Positions 1-9,213 of a DNA stretch of 9,213 nucleotides are shown here, one piece after another. Positions within the stretch are counted from its first letter, which is position 1. The number at the start of each line of letters is the position of its first letter. The position numbers and the translations under genes are program-made. The notes under the pieces were generated by a model. That model did not search any database, had not been told where the DNA came from, and was given only the letters and a program-made list of their open reading frames with translations. The DNA comes from Tannerella sp. GTDB taxonomy: Bacteria > Bacteroidota > Bacteroidia > Bacteroidales > Tannerellaceae. The stretch lies in the NCBI GenBank assembly GCA_031283785.1, contig JAITBC010000015.1, positions 1 to 9,213 of the forward strand. The letters run 5' to 3'.

Positions 1-497
1 TTCTGATTGTCCAAATATTTTTTCCAATACTCTGCTTCTTTCGGATAATCTACCCAAGTACGAAAAACATTTTCATTTCCTTTCAGTATTAATGGATAAA
101 ATGACCATATAAAATGTGGTTTTTTCGCCTTTTTGATATCTTCTAAAATTGCCAGCGTTTGATTTGTTATGCCTGAAACATACACATCATAACCCTTAAT
201 TGATTGCGATTTGAAGATGGAGACAGTGTTTTTTGCATTACCTGCATTATCTTGCATATCATAATAGATAGCAATGTCATATAAATCCAACGAGTCTTTC
301 AATTCGTCCATCGCCAAGTTAATACCATCTCTGACCGATTCTCCATAAATAGACAAATCGCCTGTCATAGGCATATTCACAGCAACATCAATTGATATTG
401 CTTTTTTACTGCTTCCTTTACTTTTCCCGAAGAACCACCAGCCTGCAAAGGCTACCAATACTATGGCAATTATGCCGATCAAAATTTTCTTATTCAT
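1..497 (-). CDS. Periplasmic substrate-binding protein of a Liv/HAAT-type ABC transporter (partial, C-terminus outside window)
   Basis: I translated this by hand. An ATG at 497-495 opens a frame that stays open for 165 codons to the window edge. Residues 1-23 are a Lys-rich start followed by a hydrophobic helix. No lipobox cysteine follows it, so it is a signal peptide (possible AFA/G cut after residue 18) or an uncleaved anchor. Residues 34-70 have the pattern that opens type I binding proteins of the LivJ/LivK family: a beta strand, then PMTGDLSIYGESVRDGINLAMDEL. A later strand, DVYVSGITNQTLAILEDI, fits the 'ligand site then alpha helix' segment of the Peripla_BP_6 fold. About 165 of the usual 350-400 residues are visible. 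It starts 12 bases after the livF stop and is presumably co-transcribed. It should capture the substrate and deliver it to LivH/LivM; the substrate is unknown. It is more AT-rich than the liv genes before it. The family call is fairly safe; amino acid specificity is not shown. Confidence 0.85.
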   Translation of the reverse strand, partial: MNKKILIGIIAIVLVAFAGWWFFGKSKGSSKKAISIDVAVNMPMTGDLSIYGESVRDGINLAMDELKDSLDLYDIAIYYDMQDNAGNAKNTVSIFKSQSIKGYDVYVSGITNQTLAILEDIKKAKKPHFIWSFYPLILKGNENVFRTWVDYPKEAEYWKKYLDNQ

Positions 498-509
498 ACT
501 TTTGCTGAA

Positions 510-1193
510 TTAATTATTAAACATTATATTTTCTATTTTCTTTAAATTTTTATTTGTTGTCGTGAAGGTGATTACGCCATTGCGCAGCAGATTTACCTCA
601 TCGCAGAACTGCACGGCTTTGTTTACGTTCTGTTCTATCAGCGCTATGGTAAGGTTGCGGCGTTCACGCAGGTTCTGCAAAATGCGGTACGTTTCTTCTA
701 CGGCTTGTGGCGAAAGTCCTGCCGAAGGCTCGTCGAGTATCAAAAGTTCCGGCTGCCGCAGCAGGCACATTGCCAAAGCCAGCTGATGCCGCTGTCCGCC
801 GCTTAGCTTGTCGGCGTTTTTCCGCAAAAAAGTATTTTCAAAGTTGAAAAACGACAGGATTTCGGCAATGTCCGTTTTTGCTTTTGCGGCAAAATGCAGG
901 TTTTCCATTACCGAAAGTTCGTCGAACACGACCCCTCCCTGCAAAAACAGTGAAATACCTCTGTGGCACAGTTCTGTGGTCGTTTGTTCGGAGACGTCCG
1001 TGTCGTCTATAAAAATTTTGCCTTGCCGGAATGGCAACGTGTTCATTACCGCTTTGGTAAACGTAGATTTACCGCTGCCGTTCAAGCCGATAATGCCGAC
1101 TGCCTGCCCGCTTTCGACGGTCAGATTTACACCTTGCAGAATCTGATGTCCGCTTGTGTAACCGCCTGTAATATTTTTCAGTTCCAGTTTCAT
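510..1193 (-). CDS. livF: LivF-type ATP-binding subunit of HAAT-family ABC importer
   Basis: This 227-residue cytoplasmic ATPase energises import together with LivG. Visible motifs are Walker A GLNGSGKST (residues 36-44), Q-loop Gln85 in LFLQGG, the ABC signature LSGGQ (130-134) followed by Arg-His, and Walker B LLILDE (150-155) with D-loop SAGLSP. At the switch (H-loop) position it reads IEQN (186-189), with Gln188 instead of His. That substitution is characteristic of LivF and not a defect; E. coli LivF also has EQN there. The length is close to that of E. coli LivF. The ATG at 1193-1191 overlaps the livG stop in an ATGA arrangement, which implies translational coupling. The C-terminus after residue 205 is short and rich in Asn and Lys. 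The amino acid specificity implied by the symbol is a family convention; related urea and amide transporters use very similar ATPases. Confidence 0.92.
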   Translation of the reverse strand: MKLELKNITGGYTSGHQILQGVNLTVESGQAVGIIGLNGSGKSTFTKAVMNTLPFRQGKIFIDDTDVSEQTTTELCHRGISLFLQGGVVFDELSVMENLHFAAKAKTDIAEILSFFNFENTFLRKNADKLSGGQRHQLALAMCLLRQPELLILDEPSAGLSPQAVEETYRILQNLRERRNLTIALIEQNVNKAVQFCDEVNLLRNGVITFTTTNKNLKKIENIMFNN

Positions 1194-1972
1194 TCCACGC
1201 CCAAATAACTGTTTTTGACTTCCTGATTATTTAACACTTCGGCTGCCGTCCCTTCGAACTGAATTTTGCCGTCGTCGAGATACGCCACTTTATCGGCTAT
1301 ATCCTTTACAAACTGCATGTTATGTTCTATCAGCAATATAGTTTTTCCTCCATCCGCCATTTGCCGGATCATCCGCTTGATTTGTTCGATATACACGGGA
1401 TTGACGCCCGCCGTCGGTTCGTCGAGTAACAACAGCGAATAGTCGCCCATCATCAGGCCAGCCAGCGACAGCAGACGCTGCTCGCCGCAGGAAAAATCAT
1501 TGCCAAGCGTATGCAGCATGTTTTCGGAATACTTGTTTTGCTTGCCGAAAAGTTTTTCCAGCGTTGCGATTGCCCGCGCGGTCGTGTTCCGTTCCGTGTC
1601 CTGCCATTTTCCCTTGTGGAAAAGGGCTGCAAACGGCGTCTCGGCATTACGGGAAATATGCAACTTCATATTTTCGAGCAAAGTCAAGTCGGACAAAAGC
1701 GATTTCCCCTGAAACAGTCGTCCGACACCCCGCCTCGCAATTTCGTGAGATGGACGCGCATCGATCCTCTTCCCGTTAAAAACAACTTCGCCGCCGTAAT
1801 CCTTCTTAAAACCCGAAATAACATTGAACAGCGTGGTTTTCCCTGTGCCGTTGCCGCCTACAATAGCGGTTATTTTCCCGCTTTCCACACATAAGTTTAA
1901 GCCGTCAAGAAATTTGAAGGTATTTTTTCCGTTACCGAAACTCAAAGTAATATTTTTCAATATCAAATGCAT
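1190..1972 (-). CDS. livG: LivG-type ATP-binding subunit of HAAT-family ABC importer
   Basis: This is the 260-residue second ATPase of the importer. Walker A is GGNGTGKT (39-46), the Q-loop is LFQ with Gln88, Walker B is LLLLDE (180-185) followed by PTAGVNP, and the switch histidine is His217 in IEHNM. The long insert between the Q-loop and the signature (about residues 100-158) and the ending GTAAEVLNNQ...SYLG are typical of LivG, which usually closes with a 'G-x-x-E-V...AYLG' pattern. The ABC signature is SCGEQR (161-166), where LivG proteins usually have SYGQQR. The Ser, Gly and Gln needed to contact ATP are kept, so activity is expected. The start lies 12 bases after the livM stop behind an A-rich leader ending AGAAG. 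Length and motifs are complete, with no sign of decay. Confidence 0.92.
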   Translation of the reverse strand: MHLILKNITLSFGNGKNTFKFLDGLNLCVESGKITAIVGGNGTGKTTLFNVISGFKKDYGGEVVFNGKRIDARPSHEIARRGVGRLFQGKSLLSDLTLLENMKLHISRNAETPFAALFHKGKWQDTERNTTARAIATLEKLFGKQNKYSENMLHTLGNDFSCGEQRLLSLAGLMMGDYSLLLLDEPTAGVNPVYIEQIKRMIRQMADGGKTILLIEHNMQFVKDIADKVAYLDDGKIQFEGTAAEVLNNQEVKNSYLGVE

Positions 1973-1984
1973 CTTCTGTTTTTT

Positions 1985-2857
1985 TTAACCGACTACTATT
2001 TTCCCCCACATCCCTTGTGGCCGGTAGTACATCACCACTACCAACGCCAAGCCATAAATAATTTGCCGCAAATTGGCCGCTACCGCATCAGGTAAGCCCA
2101 CAAAGCGTAATAATTCGGGCAATAATACCACAAAGACAGCGCCAAATACAGGCCCTCGGATATTCCCTGTTCCGCCGATAAACAAGGCGGTAAGGATGAA
2201 AATACTCTCGTCAACAGTGAAACTCGTCGGGTCGATATAGCTGATGTATGAAGCGTAAAACAGTCCTGCCAAACCCGAAAACGCAGCGGAAATAAAAAAC
2301 GCCCACGTCTTGAAACGCGCAGGATTACGCCCCAACGCCGCTACCGCGATTTCGTCGCTACGAATAGCCGTCAAAATTCGTCCGAATGGCGAAGTTCTCA
2401 GGTGCTGGAACAGTAAAATCACAACTGCCGATACGCAGGTCGTTAAAACAAAATAACCGTAAACGCCCGATATTTCTATTGTTCCAAAAAGTTTCACCGC
2501 AGGAATACCCGCCACACCGTAAGGGCCGCGTGTCACGTCCGTCCAGTTATATAAAACGGTAAAAACAATCATCTGAAATGCCAGCGTTGCCAGCACAAAG
2601 TAGTCGCCCTTGAGTTTGACCGATGCAAACGAAACCAACAGGCTGCAAACGCCTGTCAGCAGCATAACCGTCAATGCCACGATAATAAACGGCAAATGGA
2701 AGCGCATCAGGAAATACGCTGCAAAATAGGCGCCTATACCGTAAAATGCCGCCTGGCATATCGACAGCAGGTTAGCAAGTCCTGTCGGCAAATTCGCCGC
2801 CAAAACCAGGAGAACATAGATGTTCAACATTATTACGATGTGCAGTATATATTCCAT
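1985..2857 (-). CDS. livM: LivM-type permease subunit of HAAT-family ABC importer
   Basis: A 290-residue, very hydrophobic inner-membrane protein, one half of the translocation pore. LivM hallmarks appear in order. GDYFVLATLAF (84-94) precedes a conserved glycine loop TRGPYGVAGIP (109-119). The cytoplasmic coupling loop TAIRSDEIAVAALGRNPARFK (163-183) contacts an ATPase. FSGLAGLFYA (193-202) and IGGTGNIRGPVFGA (227-240) follow. The protein ends IYGLALVVVMYYRPQGMWG (267-285), the classical LivM C-terminus. It lacks the long N-terminal extension of E. coli LivM (425 residues), as is common in other bacteria. Its ATG is separated from the livH stop by a single base, so the two permease subunits are probably translationally coupled and made in equal amounts. 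I see no frameshift or truncation. Confidence 0.92.
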   Translation of the reverse strand: MEYILHIVIMLNIYVLLVLAANLPTGLANLLSICQAAFYGIGAYFAAYFLMRFHLPFIIVALTVMLLTGVCSLLVSFASVKLKGDYFVLATLAFQMIVFTVLYNWTDVTRGPYGVAGIPAVKLFGTIEISGVYGYFVLTTCVSAVVILLFQHLRTSPFGRILTAIRSDEIAVAALGRNPARFKTWAFFISAAFSGLAGLFYASYISYIDPTSFTVDESIFILTALFIGGTGNIRGPVFGAVFVVLLPELLRFVGLPDAVAANLRQIIYGLALVVVMYYRPQGMWGKIVVG

Positions 2858-2858
2858 T

Positions 2859-3728
2859 TTATACCATCCTTTTTTTATATCCCAAAATCCCCTGCGGCTT
2901 GAAAAACAGAAACAGCAACAAAACTAAAAAAGTAATTGCGTTCTGCCAGTTAGCCGAAAATTGATATACTACCAGCGATTGCAGCACGCCTAACAGCAGA
3001 CCGCCCAAAATGCAGGCATTAAAGCGTCCCACGCCGCCGATAATCATAGCCACCATCGCGTTAATCAGCACCGGCATCCCCATGTGCGGGTCCATTCCAA
3101 TATCGTAAGCCGTCAGGCAACTGCCCGTTGCAAGAAAAACGCCGCTCAGGGCAAACACCATCATCCGCGTAGCTGCAACATGAAAGCCCAACACTTCAAA
3201 CAAAGTTACATTGTTACTTAAAGCCTGCGTTTTCAGCCCGAAACGGCTGAATTTCAGAAAAGCAAGAAACGCCGCCATCAGCAAAATCCCAACTGCCGCC
3301 TGCAGCATTTGCGGACGGGTAATGATTATTTCACCAAAATGATACGTATCCTGCATGTTGTTGTCCAACACCTTTGTTTCGTTGCCGAAAATCATTGCCA
3401 CCACATTTACAAGCGCCGTCATCACGCCGATCGACGAAATCATCACTACGTTGAGCGAAGATTTCTTCCGCGACAAGGGTTTATACACTACCCATTCGCA
3501 CAGCATACTCAACCCCGCCGTAACGAACACTGCCGTCAAAGCCGCCCATCCCAACGGAATGCCCAATACATTGAACGCATAATAAAACGCATATGCCGCC
3601 GCCACATACAATGCTGCCGCAGCAATATGAAAAATCCGGGTCGTATTGTACACCAGCGCAAACCCTATCGCCGACAGGCCGTAGAGTATGCCGGTAATCA
3701 TGCCGTTTATGATAAATTGTGCGAACAT
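2859..3728 (-). CDS. livH: LivH-type permease subunit of HAAT-family ABC importer
   Basis: A 289-residue hydrophobic inner-membrane protein, the partner of LivM in the pore. The N-terminus NGMITGILYGLSAIGFALVY (8-27) followed by TTRIFHIAAAALYVAAAY (29-46) is the usual LivH opening, in which E. coli LivH has 'N-F-A-H-G' where this protein reads FHIAA. The coupling loop that meets the ATPase is QALSNNVTLFEVLGFHVAAT (168-187). Residues 222-250, with MVAMIIGGVGRFNACILGG, match the conserved distal segment, and the end FFKPQGILG (275-283) is typical. The ATG at 3728-3726 lies 15 bases after the stop of the protease gene, behind an A-rich leader that ends AGAAG, the same five bases that precede livG. 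This is the first transporter gene after the tubulin-like/protease pair. No promoter is obvious in the 15-base gap, so either transcription reads through or a promoter sits inside the protease gene. Confidence 0.92.
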   Translation of the reverse strand: MFAQFIINGMITGILYGLSAIGFALVYNTTRIFHIAAAALYVAAAYAFYYAFNVLGIPLGWAALTAVFVTAGLSMLCEWVVYKPLSRKKSSLNVVMISSIGVMTALVNVVAMIFGNETKVLDNNMQDTYHFGEIIITRPQMLQAAVGILLMAAFLAFLKFSRFGLKTQALSNNVTLFEVLGFHVAATRMMVFALSGVFLATGSCLTAYDIGMDPHMGMPVLINAMVAMIIGGVGRFNACILGGLLLGVLQSLVVYQFSANWQNAITFLVLLLFLFFKPQGILGYKKRMV

Positions 3729-3743
3729 CTTCTATATTTACTT

Positions 3744-6700
3744 TTATCCGGTAATATCACTTAAATTCAACTCTTCCATTTGAACATCAATTGCCTTATA
3801 AGGAGACAGGATCGGTTGAACCGGTTTCGTGAACCGATCTCCGTCATGCAAACCTTCTCCATTGGGAATATTTATAAAAACCATTTCGCTTGTTGCAGGC
3901 GTTTTGGTATGTCGCAAGAAAACTTTCGATTTGTTGTGTAAATCCTCAATTATTCCATTAAAATCCGCGTTCTTCAAAAAGGGGAAATTTTTTGTGTCCG
4001 ACAGGTAAGCGAAAACATTAAAACCTTGAATTTGCGATTTCAATTCGGCGATAAATATTTGTTTCATATTTTGCTCATACCTGTTGATCGTTTCGTTAAC
4101 AGATGTCCTCCAATCTATGTCGTGTTGATTAAAAATATCTGACAGAAAGATGTTATGAGTAATCGTATCTTTGTTTCCGTCAAAGTAAATATCCAACTGC
4201 CCGTTGTGAATCAAAGAAGATACAAACGAAACATTATCTTTAGGCGACATCTTCGATTCCTCCTGCGTTGTTTTATATAATGCATTTAGATAATCGATAA
4301 AGGCAACCAAAAACGTATATTTATCATCTAAATTCATTTTTAGCGTTTTATATCGCAATAATATCTGATGTGCCGTATCAATACGCAAATCGCTGTTTTT
4401 CAATTCAGTAAGCCGGTTTGCCTTTTTCTTGAAAACAGAATCACATTTTTCCGTACATTCATCTTTTAAATTTTTATACCTTCTGTTTCTATGTCGCAGA
4501 TACATATTCATACCGAATATACATAGAGCTATTACCGTCAGCCCCAGTATATTCAGGGCAAAAACAAAGCAGACAATGCAAAGTAATATTGCAATCGCCG
4601 AAACAGGAAGCGCCGTCTTAACCGTTTTCTTTCTGCAAAGAGACAGTTCTTCCTGTTTATGCTGTTCCGTGTCCTCCCAAATCTTCTGTAATGCATCTAT
4701 TTCAATCTGCAATCGCTTTTTTGTCGCCTCTTTTAGCATTGTGTAATTTGAAGAATCAAGAATATTGTTTTTTAATTCATTATATTCTCCATTTAATTCG
4801 GCAAGTACGCGGGTCTTTGTTTCTAAAATACGTTTTTTATTGGCAAGCCGGTTTTTCAAAACATTGACCTGAAGCTGAGCGTCCTCGCCGTCAAAATTTA
4901 CCCCTTTGCGTCTTACGATACCGTGCGCTTTGTAAACCGTAACTTCTGTAATGATATAACCGAGTTTACGGGTTAACGAAGCATCGGTAATATACGAATA
5001 AGGGAAATAGCAATACCCCTTGTCTCCAAAACCGTCGCCCCACGAATTTCGAACGATAAATAATTGCTCATCATCGTCATAACCGCATATTACCATAGCA
5101 TGTCCGCGATTCCTGTTGTCTTTTGCAGCATTGTCGATTTCTTCCTTTGTCGGCATTGAAACAATTCCTTTGTAGCTGCTTCCGAACGAATCATATAATT
5201 TGGCGGCAAATTCGACGGGGTATCCATCTTCCAACGCCGATTTTATATCATCTACGTTCAGGTTCAGGTTCAGGGATTTTTCCGCACGGCGGGATTTGGC
5301 ATCTTCGTATGCGAGTTCGCCGGGGGGATTATCAGGCGTAAGAAGTACGGCCGGATCATACGGACAGACGTCTTCCGAACAGATGCCATATTTGCCGAGC
5401 GACATGATATTATAATATATACAGCTGCCTTCATCTTTATAAGCATCATCCCCGCCCCCTAAAACTCTTGCGTTGTAATACTGAAACGATTCGCTCAAAT
5501 CTGTTTTTTCGGCTTTATTACTTTTGAGTATATATTCAAAAATAGACAAAACGGAGTGGGCTGCACAAGAACCTTGACATTTCTGATTCCTGATTTCGGT
5601 AAAACCATCCCTTAAATCTATTTTCGAACTTTTTACCGGATGCGGCTTGTAATATTCGGCATCGAGCGGTTTTAATTCAACATCGGGCAATAAATGATAA
5701 AAATTCCCTTCGTCATCTATCCATCCATCCTGTTTTATATATTCTTTGCCGACTTCTTCCCGATGTTCTATGGTCTTGCTCAGGCGTTCTATCTCTTCTT
5801 CATGACGATGAATTTCGGCATTCAGCTGCAAACTTTCAATTCGCAGTTTTTTGATTGCTTTCCATTGAGATTCAACGTTATTGTAATCGCTCGACAAAAC
5901 GGCCTCGTCCTTTGTTTCCTCTTTGTCCAACAACGAATTATTGGCATCGACAAAAACATCGATTGCCTCTGAATTAAGATCTTCCAACATCAAAGTATCT
6001 TCGGAAAATAATGTTCCCGCAAGGACTTCGTCATTCTTGGACAATAAGGCGGAGAAAACTGCACGTTTCAGCGGCAGTGTGAAATTCTTGCCATACAATG
6101 ACCTTTCCTGCAGGAAAGATTCACATTCCCGCTCCGTTTGCTTTATCCTTTCGTCTAAAATCCGTTCAATTTCCCGACTGATTATATTGTGCGTATCCTG
6201 CTTGTCTAACCGGCTTTGTATTTCGGTTTGATAAAAAGAAGAAAACAAATTGATTTTATCTCTTAAGATATCCTGCGTTTTATTTAACACGAATTTAATA
6301 GATTCCACATCCGTATCCGTACTGCCGGTAATTCCCTCTTTCTCCATTGCATACAGATATGATTTATGAAGCAGATAGTTTACAAAATAAAACCGGTCGA
6401 ACCGGAGAACAGACATCCCAATGGTTATTAAATCGGATTCGTAAGGTGCCGCTTTGAATAAACCCCTTTCGTTTCCTTCGTAATTTTCTATACACAACAA
6501 TGCAAATTCACTCAAAAAAGCGGCAAATAACTCTTGGGTGAAATTTAACGAAAGCCCTCTTTCCTGGCAGTTCGATACAATGATAAAATGTGATATATTC
6601 GTGTCGTTACGACGCAAATCCGCGATTTTTTCCGTAACATCATCAGCCGTCGGCGCATGTGTTTTTTCATCATCCTTTCGTATATCAGGAAAAAGATCGG

Positions 6701-7178
6701 CCAAATCGGCGGCATAACCGATAATATCAATTCCAAAGTTTAATGTTGTTTCGCCTATGAGTTCTATACAACGTGTTACCTGTTCACAGACTGTGACGTC
6801 AAACAAAGGCAGATGAAGACAAATATTCAATTCCGTCGCAACACCCATATATTCCAGATTGATTCTTGATTGATACAATGTCCTGAAATAAGCAATTATT
6901 TTATCCTTTTCGCCGGGTTTAAATTTAGAAACTTCCGACATATCCATGTACTTATTTTCTAATAAGGCAACGAATTGATCCGGATCTTCTTTGTCGGCAA
7001 TGAAGCGGATGTGGGTCAGCGTAATTGTACCGTCTTCATTTTCCTGCCAAAGAATAGCCGTGAAATACGGTACAATTTCCGGTTGTCCGTATTTCACGAC
7101 ATATTTTTGAACGTCCGACAATGTTTGGGCAAGATCTTGCCCAAACATTATATACACGAAATGACGATAGTTGAACAT
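3744..7178 (-). CDS. Membrane-anchored multidomain protein with papain-like (C1-type) cysteine protease domain
   Basis: The 1144-residue protein has several regions. Residues 1-~300 are an unrecognised alpha/beta region. About 300-480 are charged helices and coiled coil. About 515-735 are a papain-like peptidase. About 763-850 are coiled coil. At 856-894 is a hydrophobic stretch long enough for two short membrane helices, with basic clusters on both sides (CRKKTVK and RHRNRRYK). That suggests a hairpin with both ends in the cytosol. Residues 895-1144 are unrecognised. The protease call rests on three aligned blocks: IRNQKCQGSCAAHS (529-542), giving oxyanion Gln532 and nucleophile Cys538; RGHAM (691-695), giving His693; and RNSWGDGFGDKGY (710-722), giving Asn711 and Trp713. 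The Trp that follows the catalytic Cys in papain is Ala539 here. All catalytic residues are present, so it is probably active. No secretion signal is seen at the N-terminus. The ATG at 7178 lies 4 bases after the upstream stop; Met11 (7148) is an alternative start that sits inside a perfect palindrome. Substrate and role are unknown. Confidence 0.88.
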   Translation of the reverse strand: MFNYRHFVYIMFGQDLAQTLSDVQKYVVKYGQPEIVPYFTAILWQENEDGTITLTHIRFIADKEDPDQFVALLENKYMDMSEVSKFKPGEKDKIIAYFRTLYQSRINLEYMGVATELNICLHLPLFDVTVCEQVTRCIELIGETTLNFGIDIIGYAADLADLFPDIRKDDEKTHAPTADDVTEKIADLRRNDTNISHFIIVSNCQERGLSLNFTQELFAAFLSEFALLCIENYEGNERGLFKAAPYESDLITIGMSVLRFDRFYFVNYLLHKSYLYAMEKEGITGSTDTDVESIKFVLNKTQDILRDKINLFSSFYQTEIQSRLDKQDTHNIISREIERILDERIKQTERECESFLQERSLYGKNFTLPLKRAVFSALLSKNDEVLAGTLFSEDTLMLEDLNSEAIDVFVDANNSLLDKEETKDEAVLSSDYNNVESQWKAIKKLRIESLQLNAEIHRHEEEIERLSKTIEHREEVGKEYIKQDGWIDDEGNFYHLLPDVELKPLDAEYYKPHPVKSSKIDLRDGFTEIRNQKCQGSCAAHSVLSIFEYILKSNKAEKTDLSESFQYYNARVLGGGDDAYKDEGSCIYYNIMSLGKYGICSEDVCPYDPAVLLTPDNPPGELAYEDAKSRRAEKSLNLNLNVDDIKSALEDGYPVEFAAKLYDSFGSSYKGIVSMPTKEEIDNAAKDNRNRGHAMVICGYDDDEQLFIVRNSWGDGFGDKGYCYFPYSYITDASLTRKLGYIITEVTVYKAHGIVRRKGVNFDGEDAQLQVNVLKNRLANKKRILETKTRVLAELNGEYNELKNNILDSSNYTMLKEATKKRLQIEIDALQKIWEDTEQHKQEELSLCRKKTVKTALPVSAIAILLCIVCFVFALNILGLTVIALCIFGMNMYLRHRNRRYKNLKDECTEKCDSVFKKKANRLTELKNSDLRIDTAHQILLRYKTLKMNLDDKYTFLVAFIDYLNALYKTTQEESKMSPKDNVSFVSSLIHNGQLDIYFDGNKDTITHNIFLSDIFNQHDIDWRTSVNETINRYEQNMKQIFIAELKSQIQGFNVFAYLSDTKNFPFLKNADFNGIIEDLHNKSKVFLRHTKTPATSEMVFINIPNGEGLHDGDRFTKPVQPILSPYKAIDVQMEELNLSDITG
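5256..5273. repeat. Three tandem copies of the hexamer GTTCAG in the protease coding region
   Basis: Three exact copies of a six-base unit encode Leu-Asn-Leu-Asn-Leu-Asn (residues 636-641) on the minus strand, within the protease domain between the catalytic Cys and His blocks. The frame is kept whatever the copy number, because the unit is two codons. This is probably a slippage-prone loop or strand with no regulatory meaning. Confidence 0.85.
7120..7149. repeat. Perfect 30-bp palindrome at the 5' end of the protease gene
   Basis: The 15-base half AATGTTTGGGCAAGA is followed directly by its exact reverse complement, centred on GATC between 7134 and 7135. On the coding (minus) strand it covers codons 11-19 of the protease gene and contains an in-frame ATG (Met11) one base from its outer edge. 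In mRNA it could fold into a stem of about 13 base pairs with a GAUC loop. It could act as a translation-limiting hairpin, a site for a dimeric DNA-binding protein, or an early transcription-attenuation site. The sequence shows the palindrome; the function is inference. Confidence 0.9.
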
Positions 7179-7182
7179 AACA

Positions 7183-9213
7183 CTACAACGTTACATCAAT
7201 TTTAAGGTTATCAATGCCGCTGTTCAATCCTAAATCGTCCAGCAGTCCCGACAAATATTGAATCTCCGCAATAATTTGCTTTGATGTGGCATCGTTATTT
7301 GATCTGGTATTAACATACACGCTATGAGGCGTATAAGGTGACTTTGAATATTTCTCAGGCTCTGTCAGATACTTGCAAGTGTCTGTTCCTTTATCCAAAA
7401 CCGGTTCCATGGCCGTTTGTATTTTCTTTCTGATCTCCGCCGAGTTTTTATTTATCGAGCTTGCAATGATGTCGTCGTATTCATTTCTAAAATTAGGCAG
7501 TTGGCTTGCAAAATTGTCAAAGGCGTTTTTCCTCTTGCCTGTCTGCGTAGAAATCCAACCCTTGCCAAGCACAGAGATATCATTACTGTTCGGATTGTAA
7601 TAATAATAAACGCCATCTTCCTTACGTACTTTTACAAAACAATCGAATATCAGGCCAAATATCCAATATTTGTATGCCTCATTATCATTATCCTTTGGAA
7701 AGATGGAAAACTTTTCCTTTTCCATTCGTTCAAATATGGGATAGTCGAAATGGGGCAATTTCCCTGATTTTAAAGATTTATTGTAATTATGCAGGAAAGA
7801 TTTTGTTGCGCCGACAGCATAAGCGGGAATTATACCGTCTACCCGATATATAATAATACGGTCATTCATTCCGATAGAATGATAAGTAGGATTATCGTCC
7901 ACGTTTTGTGCGTTTTTAAAAAAATTATCCGGGGTGAGAATCGGACAGGTTGCCGTATCGGGTACTCCTACAAGATACCGGCTTACTTGATTTTTTGCAT
8001 CTACCGGCCGGCCGGAATTGTATTTGTCATTACAATTTATCGGCAAAAGAGGTTTGGCTTTCGATGTTGCCCTTTTGATAATTTCCTTGAATTTAGTCAA
8101 ATTCTTTGCCTTCAAATCATTGAGAACGCTGTCGATATTTTTGCCTCTCCATTCGTTTGCGCCGCTCAAACTATCGACATATTTCAATATGACCTCTTTT
8201 AGAGAGTTTACATCCTTATATTCAAGCAGATTTGCAGTTCCTAAACTTTGAACAAAAGCGGCAATACTGATATCTTCATTTTGAATAGTGATATTCTCCG
8301 TCAGTACGATTTCGTTTGCCAGATTTATGGTAAATAATCCGGGAGAACGTTTCTCCGTAACTTTTATCACATCCAATTCTCTTGCAATATCCTTACGTAC
8401 ATTTTCCAAATAAGATTTTAGCAATCCCAGTATGTTTAATTCGTCATTAACGACAGTCGTCAATTTTTTGTAGACGGCAATTGCCCGTACCCTTCTGTCC
8501 TTGTCTATTTTTGCTTTCGCCACATTACAGACGGCATCACAAATAGAGTCTTTAATGATTTTTGTTTTTTTATCCCTGTTCCATACAAATTTCTTCTTCC
8601 TCAACTCTTTAAGATCATCAACAGCATTTGCGACAATCGCTTCCAAACTTGGAATTGAAGCGTAATTATTCACGGTTGTTTTGCCGTCAAAAGCGTTTTT
8701 CTCCTTTTCCATTTCGGCTTCGTAAATTTCTATCATCTGTTTAATTCGCTGAAGGAAAACAATGGGTTTGTGAACAGGATATTGAGAATCTTTGACCAGA
8801 TTAACAACCATTTCCCGTAACGATTTTGTTACATTATCCGTAATTTCGTTCTGTATCGAATCTAAATGTTTGCTTAAATCAGGATTTTCCGATGTTACGT
8901 ATCGCTTGTAATACATTTCAATATCCGATTGCGGCGCATCTTCATCGATATCTTCCAGTTTGGCGCCGGGATATGCATTAGAACGTACGGCATTAATCAA
9001 ATCATTTTTATCGGTTTCAACAATTTTGATTTCGCCCATCCACGTATCGGCTTCCTTTTCCGATGCGTTAACATTATCTGCCGTCGTTGCCAGCATGTTA
9101 TCGATTAGTTTCTGGGATGCTTTTAAACAGAATATATTTGCCGCCTTTTCGGCATTGAAGATAATTTTACAAGCCCCTATACGACAAATCCACGATGTTT
9201 TACCTTTGACAAG
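7183..9213 (-). CDS. Probable tubulin-like (Tubulin_2-type) protein, C-terminal part only; N-terminus outside window
   Basis: The frame is open from the window's right edge to the TAG at 7185-7183, giving 676 residues. An internal ATG exists at 9096, but the frame continues upstream of it for 39 more codons, so the gene almost certainly starts outside the window. The first visible residues, with TSWICRIGACKIIF...AEKAANIFCLKASQKLIDNML, resemble the end of the GTPase domain of bacterial tubulin-like proteins. A long charged helical region follows. Counting from the edge, VGVPDTATCPIL...IIIYRVDGIIPAYAV (about 415-467), a LPHFDY segment (about 486-491) and KYWIFGLIFD...YYYY...LGKG...KNAFDNF (about 515-568) match my memory of that family's C-terminal pattern. 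The GTP-binding signature would lie upstream and is not visible, so the call is from pattern only. No membrane segment or signal peptide is visible. The gene ends 4 bases before the protease gene, which suggests a functional pair. Alternative: a large helical protein of unknown family. Confidence 0.6.
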   Translation of the reverse strand, partial: LVKGKTSWICRIGACKIIFNAEKAANIFCLKASQKLIDNMLATTADNVNASEKEADTWMGEIKIVETDKNDLINAVRSNAYPGAKLEDIDEDAPQSDIEMYYKRYVTSENPDLSKHLDSIQNEITDNVTKSLREMVVNLVKDSQYPVHKPIVFLQRIKQMIEIYEAEMEKEKNAFDGKTTVNNYASIPSLEAIVANAVDDLKELRKKKFVWNRDKKTKIIKDSICDAVCNVAKAKIDKDRRVRAIAVYKKLTTVVNDELNILGLLKSYLENVRKDIARELDVIKVTEKRSPGLFTINLANEIVLTENITIQNEDISIAAFVQSLGTANLLEYKDVNSLKEVILKYVDSLSGANEWRGKNIDSVLNDLKAKNLTKFKEIIKRATSKAKPLLPINCNDKYNSGRPVDAKNQVSRYLVGVPDTATCPILTPDNFFKNAQNVDDNPTYHSIGMNDRIIIYRVDGIIPAYAVGATKSFLHNYNKSLKSGKLPHFDYPIFERMEKEKFSIFPKDNDNEAYKYWIFGLIFDCFVKVRKEDGVYYYYNPNSNDISVLGKGWISTQTGKRKNAFDNFASQLPNFRNEYDDIIASSINKNSAEIRKKIQTAMEPVLDKGTDTCKYLTEPEKYSKSPYTPHSVYVNTRSNNDATSKQIIAEIQYLSGLLDDLGLNSGIDNLKIDVTL

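What the first reader, a model, noticed from the sequence alone, without database searches (positions are those of the whole stretch)
1..9213. Tubulin-like protein, membrane papain-like protease and Liv-type importer in one tight gene string
Seven minus-strand genes follow one another with gaps of 4, 15, 1, 12 and 12 bases and one 4-base overlap. A putative tubulin-like protein and a membrane-anchored cysteine protease lead straight into livHMGF and a binding protein. Tubulin-like proteins and proteases are plausible parts of stress or conflict systems, but I know of no described system that adds a HAAT importer. One possibility is that a ligand-responsive importer sets the state of a membrane protease controlled by a tubulin-like switch. 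Simple read-through into unrelated neighbours is the alternative.
Basis: partly seen in the sequence, partly recalled or inferred. Interest (0 to 1): 0.7.

Follow-up and report, generated by a model that had tools for sequence, protein, structure and literature searches.

The report
Tubulin-protease system with attached importer genes
A gut-type bacterium carries, in one tightly packed gene row, a tubulin-like protein, a membrane-bound protein-cutting enzyme and a complete nutrient-type importer; some relatives seem to keep the combination and others lack it, so the link looks real but optional, and its purpose is untested.

Summary
The seven minus-strand genes and all reported gaps are correct. 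The first gene is the C-terminal two thirds of an FtsZl1/Tubulin_2 protein: the fragment has no significant Pfam hit, but its five aligned relatives do. The second is a papain-family protease with a complete Cys/His/Asn triad and a membrane segment. Then follow livH, livM, livG, livF and a truncated binding protein. The core is a variant of a known kind: in three other genomes a vWA-like or membrane protein precedes tubulin and protease, without liv. In the close subfamily, however, livH lies on contigs of identical length in 3 of 3 informative relatives, down to 45% protease identity, and these livH genes are not one clade (AU p 3.9e-6). So the link is narrow but probably not accidental, if equal length means the same contig. 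Both gene sets are rare (1 and 9 of 393 genomes). Liv cassettes elsewhere in the order carry other in-line partners (8 of 8 informative loci). I read the importer as a plug-in input module, here attached to a vWA-tubulin-protease machine. Coupling is inferred, not shown.

The parts
7183..9213 (-). C-terminal 676 residues of an FtsZl1/Tubulin_2 tubulin-like protein (nearly all of the N-terminal GTPase domain lies outside the window)
   Evidence: fold of relative P0007 closest to CetZ/FtsZ/tubulin
3744..7178 (-). 1144-residue membrane protease: N-terminal alpha/beta domain, papain domain, long helices with a membrane segment, C-terminal region
6408..7178 (-). N-terminal alpha/beta domain of the protease (residues 1-257), possibly a degenerate tubulin-like fold (weak)
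5004..5627 (-). papain (C1) catalytic domain, residues 518-725, with C538, H693 and N711
4503..4616 (-). membrane segment of the protease, about residues 855-892, probably a hairpin
   Evidence: calls one segment (862-880) in this protein and two or more in 3 of 7 proteases; about 38 mostly hydrophobic residues in a row; long helices broken near 874-876 in the model
3729..3743 (.). 15-base junction between protease and livH: no terminator-like or promoter-like site in it
2859..3728 (-). livH-type permease
1985..2857 (-). livM-type permease
1190..1972 (-). livG-type ATPase
510..1193 (-). livF-type ATPase
3..497 (-). N-terminal 165 residues of a periplasmic binding protein, with a membrane anchor and no lipobox cysteine

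Best explanation
The window holds most of a Bacteroidales-type variant of the FtsZl1 (Tubulin_2) / vWA membrane machinery whose third protein is a membrane-bound papain-type protease. In this lineage a Liv-type (HAAT) importer cassette has been added as the downstream half of the same gene row. Likely working, step by step. Shown by sequence: a protease with a complete catalytic triad and a membrane segment, and a complete transporter core with a membrane-tethered binding protein. Shown in relatives only: the tubulin/FtsZ-type GTPase domain, and a vWA-like domain and one-helix membrane protein encoded just upstream of it. Inferred: the vWA protein and the importer are two periplasmic inputs; both act on GTP-dependent assembly of the tubulin-like protein; assembly gathers and activates the protease, whose catalytic domain I place in the cytoplasm. 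Ligand captured by the binding protein and pumped in by LivHMGF would be the lineage-specific signal or co-factor that sets the protease threshold. Whether the outcome is stress control or self-killing defence is open.
For: Core unit conserved: vWA-like or membrane protein, then tubulin, then protease in L001, L002 and L136. The vWA call is below Pfam's cut-off (L001 E 2.7e-5, L002 E 0.0047) but a MIDAS-like DxTxS motif is present in both. Triad C538/H693/N711 kept in 7 of 7 aligned proteases. Basic residues on both sides of the hydrophobic stretch argue for cytoplasmic ends if it is a hairpin (read by eye). Association with livH: contigs of 15372, 26043 and 23206 bases each hold tubulin, protease and livH relatives; tubulin to binding protein takes about 11 kb, so the 15.4-kb contig leaves little room for distance. 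The livH genes of the four pair-bearing contigs are not one clade (log-likelihood drop 114, AU p 3.9e-6), although their tubulins and proteases are each other's closest found relatives. Both gene sets are rare: full-length protease in 1 of 393 and livH in 9 of 393 genomes of the order of G002, livH in 1 of 399 of the family of G061. No terminator-like site at the junction. Liv cassettes elsewhere in the order also stand in tight series with signalling or enzyme genes: 8 of 8 loci not cut off by a contig end, of 10 read.
Against: Three of seven informative pairs lack liv, and their genomes have no livH match. Of 22 listed livH relatives on contigs of 20 kb or more, 20 lack the pair. None of the ten other liv loci read has tubulin or protease beside it. 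GC at third codon positions changes sharply at the junction: 0.387-0.400 in tubulin and protease, 0.54-0.59 in livHMGF, 0.345 in the binding protein (Fisher p 1e-17 and 4e-7 against livHMGF), so the blocks have different histories or codon selection. Nothing here shows contact between importer and protease.
Confidence: 0.5

Rival explanations
1. Neighbours without functional link. The importer is an accessory, mobile-looking cassette that landed downstream of the vWA-tubulin-protease genes and was kept by descent or by shared expression only.
For: GC3 break at the junction. Liv without the pair in 20 of 22 listed relatives on contigs of 20 kb or more. Pair without liv in L001, L002, L136. Very sporadic livH: 1 of 139 genomes in the genus of G428. 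Lengths of the livH contigs bunch at 14.2-18.2 kb (24 of 120), as if the cassettes often lay on units of limited length.
Against: The co-location persists down to 45% protease identity and on two livH branches, and the binding protein, part of the cassette, shares the AT-rich composition of the pair rather than of livHMGF (p 0.24 against the pair). No close livH on plasmids (130 records, all under 60% identity).
Confidence: 0.35
2. Membrane-remodelling machine plus ordinary nutrient uptake: the FtsZl1 system shapes or repairs the envelope, as proposed for the family, and the importer merely feeds on amino acids or peptides released by envelope turnover.
For: FtsZl1/vWA systems were proposed to remodel membranes (PMC2875224, abstract and parts 1-2 of 5 read). 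HAAT importers are usually nutritional (established knowledge).
Against: The protease is predicted to act in the cytoplasm, so its products would not need import. Liv cassettes in the order are rare and travel with signalling or biosynthetic genes, unlike a housekeeping importer.
Confidence: 0.1
3. Conflict (anti-phage or abortive) system: the tubulin-like protein is the threshold device and the papain protease the effector; the importer is a second sensor of envelope or metabolite change. This overlaps with the best explanation and differs in the outcome.
For: About 52% of GAP1-N2 GTPase-centric conflict neighbourhoods are centred on tubulin genes and also hold vWA genes (PMC7159879, section 29 read). 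Low GC3 and sporadic occurrence fit accessory defence genes. A periplasmic-binding domain behind membrane helices is mentioned in that paper's System 4 (passage).
Against: No match in PADLOC for either protein. No GTPase or GAP1 recognised among the eight proteins scanned. No link to phage defence shown.
Confidence: 0.25

Closest known systems
FtsZl1 (Tubulin_2, PF13809) / vWA operons of Makarova and Koonin 2010 (PMC2875224)
   Same: FtsZ-like N-terminal domain, coiled coil, helical C-terminal domain; vWA-like partner and membrane protein in relatives; lineage-specific membrane proteins alongside; a Bacteroides sequence is in their alignment (legend)
   Different: Third protein is a papain protease; no divergent GTPase, kinase or OmpA protein recognised among the proteins scanned (not all neighbours were scanned); importer cassette attached in this lineage
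GAP1-N2 GTPase-centric conflict systems with tubulin and vWA (Kaur et al. 2020, PMC7159879)
   Same: tubulin with C-terminal coiled coil or helical domain, extracellular vWA on a membrane protein
   Different: no GAP1 or zinc-ribbon GTPase recognised among the proteins scanned; described from firmicutes and actinobacteria for the tubulin type; the words 'ABC transporter' do not occur in that paper's main text
Liv/HAAT ABC importers (LivHMGF plus binding protein)
   Same: two permeases, two ATPases and a binding protein
   Different: scores far below LivH/LivM/LivG/LivF cut-offs; binding protein anchored without a lipobox cysteine; sits behind tubulin and protease genes
Papain family C1 proteases (best sequence match PDB 3ois)
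   Same: catalytic domain with Cys, His and Asn
   Different: embedded in a 1144-residue membrane protein with long helices around a membrane segment

Membership tests
FtsZl1 / Tubulin_2 | PF13809 domain at the N-terminus | tested here: met
   Met in the five relatives aligned with the fragment (5 of 6 members of A2; P0007 is 83% identical over the window fragment); the window fragment itself lacks nearly all of the domain and has no hit
FtsZl1 / Tubulin_2 | GTP-binding loop of the GGGTG(S/T)G type | tested here: met
   AGGTGCG in P0007-P0010 and GGGTGCG in P0011, with C in place of S/T; outside the window
FtsZl1 / Tubulin_2 | coiled coil then helical C-terminal domain | tested here: met
   helix 530-605 and a largely helical remainder in the model of P0007 (mean pLDDT 64; the last third is low-confidence)
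FtsZl1 / Tubulin_2 | vWA-domain partner gene | tested here: inconclusive
   window ends inside the tubulin gene; vWA-like protein upstream in L001 and L002, below Pfam's cut-off; L136 shows only the membrane/C-terminal part
GAP1-N2 GTPase-centric conflict system | GAP1 and zinc-ribbon GTPase genes | tested here: inconclusive
   none recognised among eight proteins scanned (seven from L001 and L002, and P0005); not all neighbours were scanned
Peptidase family C1 (papain) | catalytic Cys, His, Asn | tested here: met
   C538, H693, N711 in all seven aligned proteases
Leucine/branched-chain amino acid importer LivHMGF (equivalog) | scores above the curated cut-offs | tested here: not met
   LivH 82.8 of 379; LivM 149.8 of 366; LivG 161.8 of 362; LivF 110.4 of 441 bits
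HAAT-type ABC importer | two BPD_transp_2 permeases, two ABC ATPases, one binding protein | tested here: met
   binding protein cut off by the window end
Catalogued anti-phage systems (PADLOC) | match of tubulin fragment or protease to a PADLOC model | tested here: not met
   0 families at E up to 1; the tubulin was tested only as the C-terminal fragment

The most novel reading that the evidence does not exclude
In Bacteroidales, livHMGF plus binding protein is not a feeding system but an exchangeable uptake-and-sensing front end that is wired, operon by operon, to different signalling, biosynthetic or effector back ends (prenyl-synthase-like protein with kinase-type ATPase and response regulator, RelA/SpoT with thioesterase, B12 radical SAM with large unknown proteins, methyltransferases, TonB receptor). 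In the window's lineage the back end is a vWA-tubulin-protease machine, so a small imported molecule would gate a tubulin-controlled membrane protease.
Probability: 0.35. Interest if true: 0.78.

Novelty: new variant of a known kind. Interest (0 to 1): 0.52.

Why it matters
FtsZl1/Tubulin_2 proteins were described in 2010 from gene context, and I found no experimental function for them in the passages read. A lineage in which the tubulin-like protein is coupled to a protease with an obvious activity, and probably to an importer with a findable ligand, gives two measurable outputs (cleavage and uptake) for that family. If the wider pattern of liv cassettes holds, importers annotated as amino-acid transporters in Bacteroidales would have to be reread as signal inputs.

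Tried and rejected
Idea that binding-protein type follows partner type: at first suggested by L111 and L114, rejected after all 36 pairs of nine loci were compared; same-partner pairs do not stand out. What remains is that the window's binding protein is unusually divergent (23-29% to all eight others) while its livH is 26-59% identical to theirs.

Idea that the 770-residue third protein of L126 is the same scaffold without papain: collinear but weak (hhalign E 0.043, probability 1.2%). Left open.

Phage or plasmid origin: tubulin and livH alignments gave no confirmed relative in viral contigs; the protease alignment gave 189 stretches, of which the 80 kept match only around the papain domain. 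In plasmids 0 of 18 and 0 of 8 records cover 80% of protease or tubulin, and 130 records match livH, all under 60% identity.

Limits of the counts. The order and family samples were drawn evenly by the tool, group names were not told, and at most two candidates a genome were scored, so weak copies may be missed. That the order of G002 is Bacteroidales follows from the title of L002. The 129-row tree (all 120 plus nine loci) also separates P0045 from the window group. The list of 120 is the best of 1192 livH proteins; that a contig lacks the pair means only that no tubulin or protease of that contig length is. Of ten liv loci outside the window, two (L112, L115) were dropped from the partner count because the contig ends inside or beside the cassette. 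A strict lipobox pattern matched 2 of 8 binding proteins; that all eight have a cysteine after the hydrophobic stretch, and the window's has none, is my reading of the printed sequences.
Full report

The second protein. The 1144-residue protein carries a papain domain at 518-725 (E 4.1e-15). C538, H693 and N711 are kept in all seven aligned proteases. About 38 mostly hydrophobic residues near 855-892 interrupt two long helices. My hydropathy scan called one segment there in this protein and two or more in 3 of 7 proteases, so a hairpin is likely but not certain. Basic residues on both sides suggest that both ends, and so the catalytic domain, are cytoplasmic; this is an inference. The model is poor in the papain part (pLDDT under 50) and fair in much of the first 250 residues, whose best structural match is tubulin but tied with Ras-like folds.

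The importer. The next five genes encode two BPD_transp_2 permeases, two ATPases and a binding protein. All four transporter genes score far below the NCBIfam cut-offs for the leucine importer, so the substrate is unknown. The binding protein has an N-terminal membrane anchor with no lipobox cysteine, whereas the eight other binding proteins compared here have a cysteine at that place (read by eye).

The core system and its relatives. A scan of species genomes with the protease alignment gave two loci, a Tannerella MAG (L001) and a Paludibacteraceae MAG (L002); a third, L136, came from the genus of the first. In L001 a vWA-like protein and a one-helix membrane protein precede tubulin and protease; in L002 the two are fused; in L136 the end of the same membrane protein is seen. 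The vWA scores are below Pfam's cut-off, but both have a DxTxS motif. None has liv next door: L001 continues with an opposite-strand gene, L002 has 543 bases without a frame of 60 residues before the contig ends, L136 continues with an unrelated protein with a signal-like start. None of their genomes has a livH match at E 1e-10; their completeness is not told. Of 295 genomes of the order, 5 have a tubulin relative at E 1e-15. One of them, L126, again has a vWA-membrane fusion upstream, but its third protein matches none of our proteases. The three-gene core is thus a variant of the FtsZl1/vWA machinery of Makarova and Koonin (PMC2875224; abstract and parts 1-2 of 5 read) and resembles the tubulin-bearing conflict systems of Kaur et al. 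(PMC7159879; section 29 and passages read). PMC9871819 was seen in passages only.

Does liv belong? The protein search lists contig lengths. Protease relatives P0002, P0003 and P0004 (81, 67, 45% identity), tubulins P0007, P0009 and P0010, and livH proteins P0013, P0014 and P0045 (92, 87, 72%) sit on contigs of 15372, 26043 and 23206 bases. I take equal lengths to mean the same contigs; I could not read them. The remaining close tubulin relative, P0008, is on a 3.5-kb contig and says nothing. P0005 (9604 bases) and P0011 (7000) are distant and uninformative. In the other direction, 22 of the 120 listed livH proteins (best of 1192) have a longest contig of 20 kb or more, and 2 of these 22 are on contigs with the pair; the absences rest on not being listed, which would miss very diverged or truncated copies.

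Independent evidence. Among 393 genomes of the order of G002, full-length protease occurs in 1 (the seed L002 itself; 15 others match only around the papain domain) and livH at E 1e-30 in 9. In 399 genomes of the family of G061, livH occurs in 1, and in 139 of that genome's genus again only in it. The four livH proteins from pair-bearing contigs are not one clade: holding them together costs 114 log-likelihood units (AU p 3.9e-6; 42 of 120 proteins used). Either the link is old and often lost, or it arose twice; a single recent accident is hard to sustain if the contig reading is right.

Composition. Third-position GC is 0.387 and 0.400 in tubulin and protease, 0.54-0.59 in livHMGF and 0.345 in the binding protein. 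The difference between livHMGF and either neighbour is significant, that between binding protein and pair is not. The same split, transporter core richer in GC than binding protein and partner genes, is seen in L110, L111 and L114 and is weak or absent in L113 and L116-L119. It shows mosaic history or codon selection and cuts both ways: the blocks differ, but the binding protein goes with the partner side.

Liv cassettes elsewhere in the order. Ten further loci were read. Two (L112, L115) are cut by contig ends. In the other eight, non-liv genes stand in tight series with the cassette: a methyltransferase between livF and binding protein (L110); B12-binding radical SAM and proteins of about 1000 residues after it (L111, L114); a TonB receptor (L113); a prenyl-synthase-like protein, a histidine-kinase-type ATPase and a response-regulator-like protein (L116, the last two below Pfam's cut-offs); an EgtD-like methyltransferase (L117), a prenyl synthase with M28 peptidase (L118), and a RelA/SpoT protein with thioesterase (L119), the last three sets lying between binding protein and livH. 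None of the ten has tubulin or protease. This is the setting in which the window's combination makes most sense: one more partner for a plug-in importer.

Verdict. My odds are about 0.5 for the stated mechanism and 0.35 for mere neighbourhood. Word searches for tubulin-like proteins with vWA, papain and conflict systems, for tubulin-like proteins with liv transport and a cysteine protease, and for liv cassettes with conflict or ComQ-type genes listed no paper whose title or abstract describes the combination (listings only, open-licence library only).

Noticed in passing
L110, L111, L113, L114, L116, L117, L118, L119: livHMGF-binding-protein cassettes of the order carry different partner genes in tight series (prenyl synthase, kinase-type ATPase and regulator, RelA/SpoT with thioesterase, B12 radical SAM, methyltransferases, TonB receptor); in L117-L119 they lie between binding protein and livH.
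   Followed up: partly
livH relatives P0012-P0131: Longest-contig lengths bunch at 14.2-18.2 kb (24 of 120; only 8 of 120 between 8 and 14 kb), as if these liv cassettes often lay on small units or contigs bounded by repeats.
   Followed up: partly
L116:6490-10324: Prenyl-synthase-like protein without DDxxD motifs next to a histidine-kinase-type ATPase and a response-regulator-like protein behind a liv cassette; the set recalls ComQ/ComP/ComA by parts only (recalled comparison).
   Followed up: no
L119:11809-13695: 628-residue protein with C-terminal RelA/SpoT domain inside a liv gene row; possible alarmone synthetase or toxin.
   Followed up: no
L110, L111, L114 and window: livHMGF has clearly higher third-position GC than the binding protein and partner genes of the same row.
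   Followed up: partly
L003-L082: Papain-type domains related to the protease's catalytic domain are common in IMG/VR viral contigs (189 confirmed stretches, best 80 kept).
   Followed up: no
L126:2313-9394: vWA-membrane fusion, Tubulin_2 protein and a 770-residue protein in tight series; the third may be a papain-less relative of the protease scaffold (weak).
   Followed up: partly
L136:3432-7127: Protease relative of 1231 residues whose membrane region appears partly duplicated relative to L001 (second match starts again at L001 residue 815).
   Followed up: no
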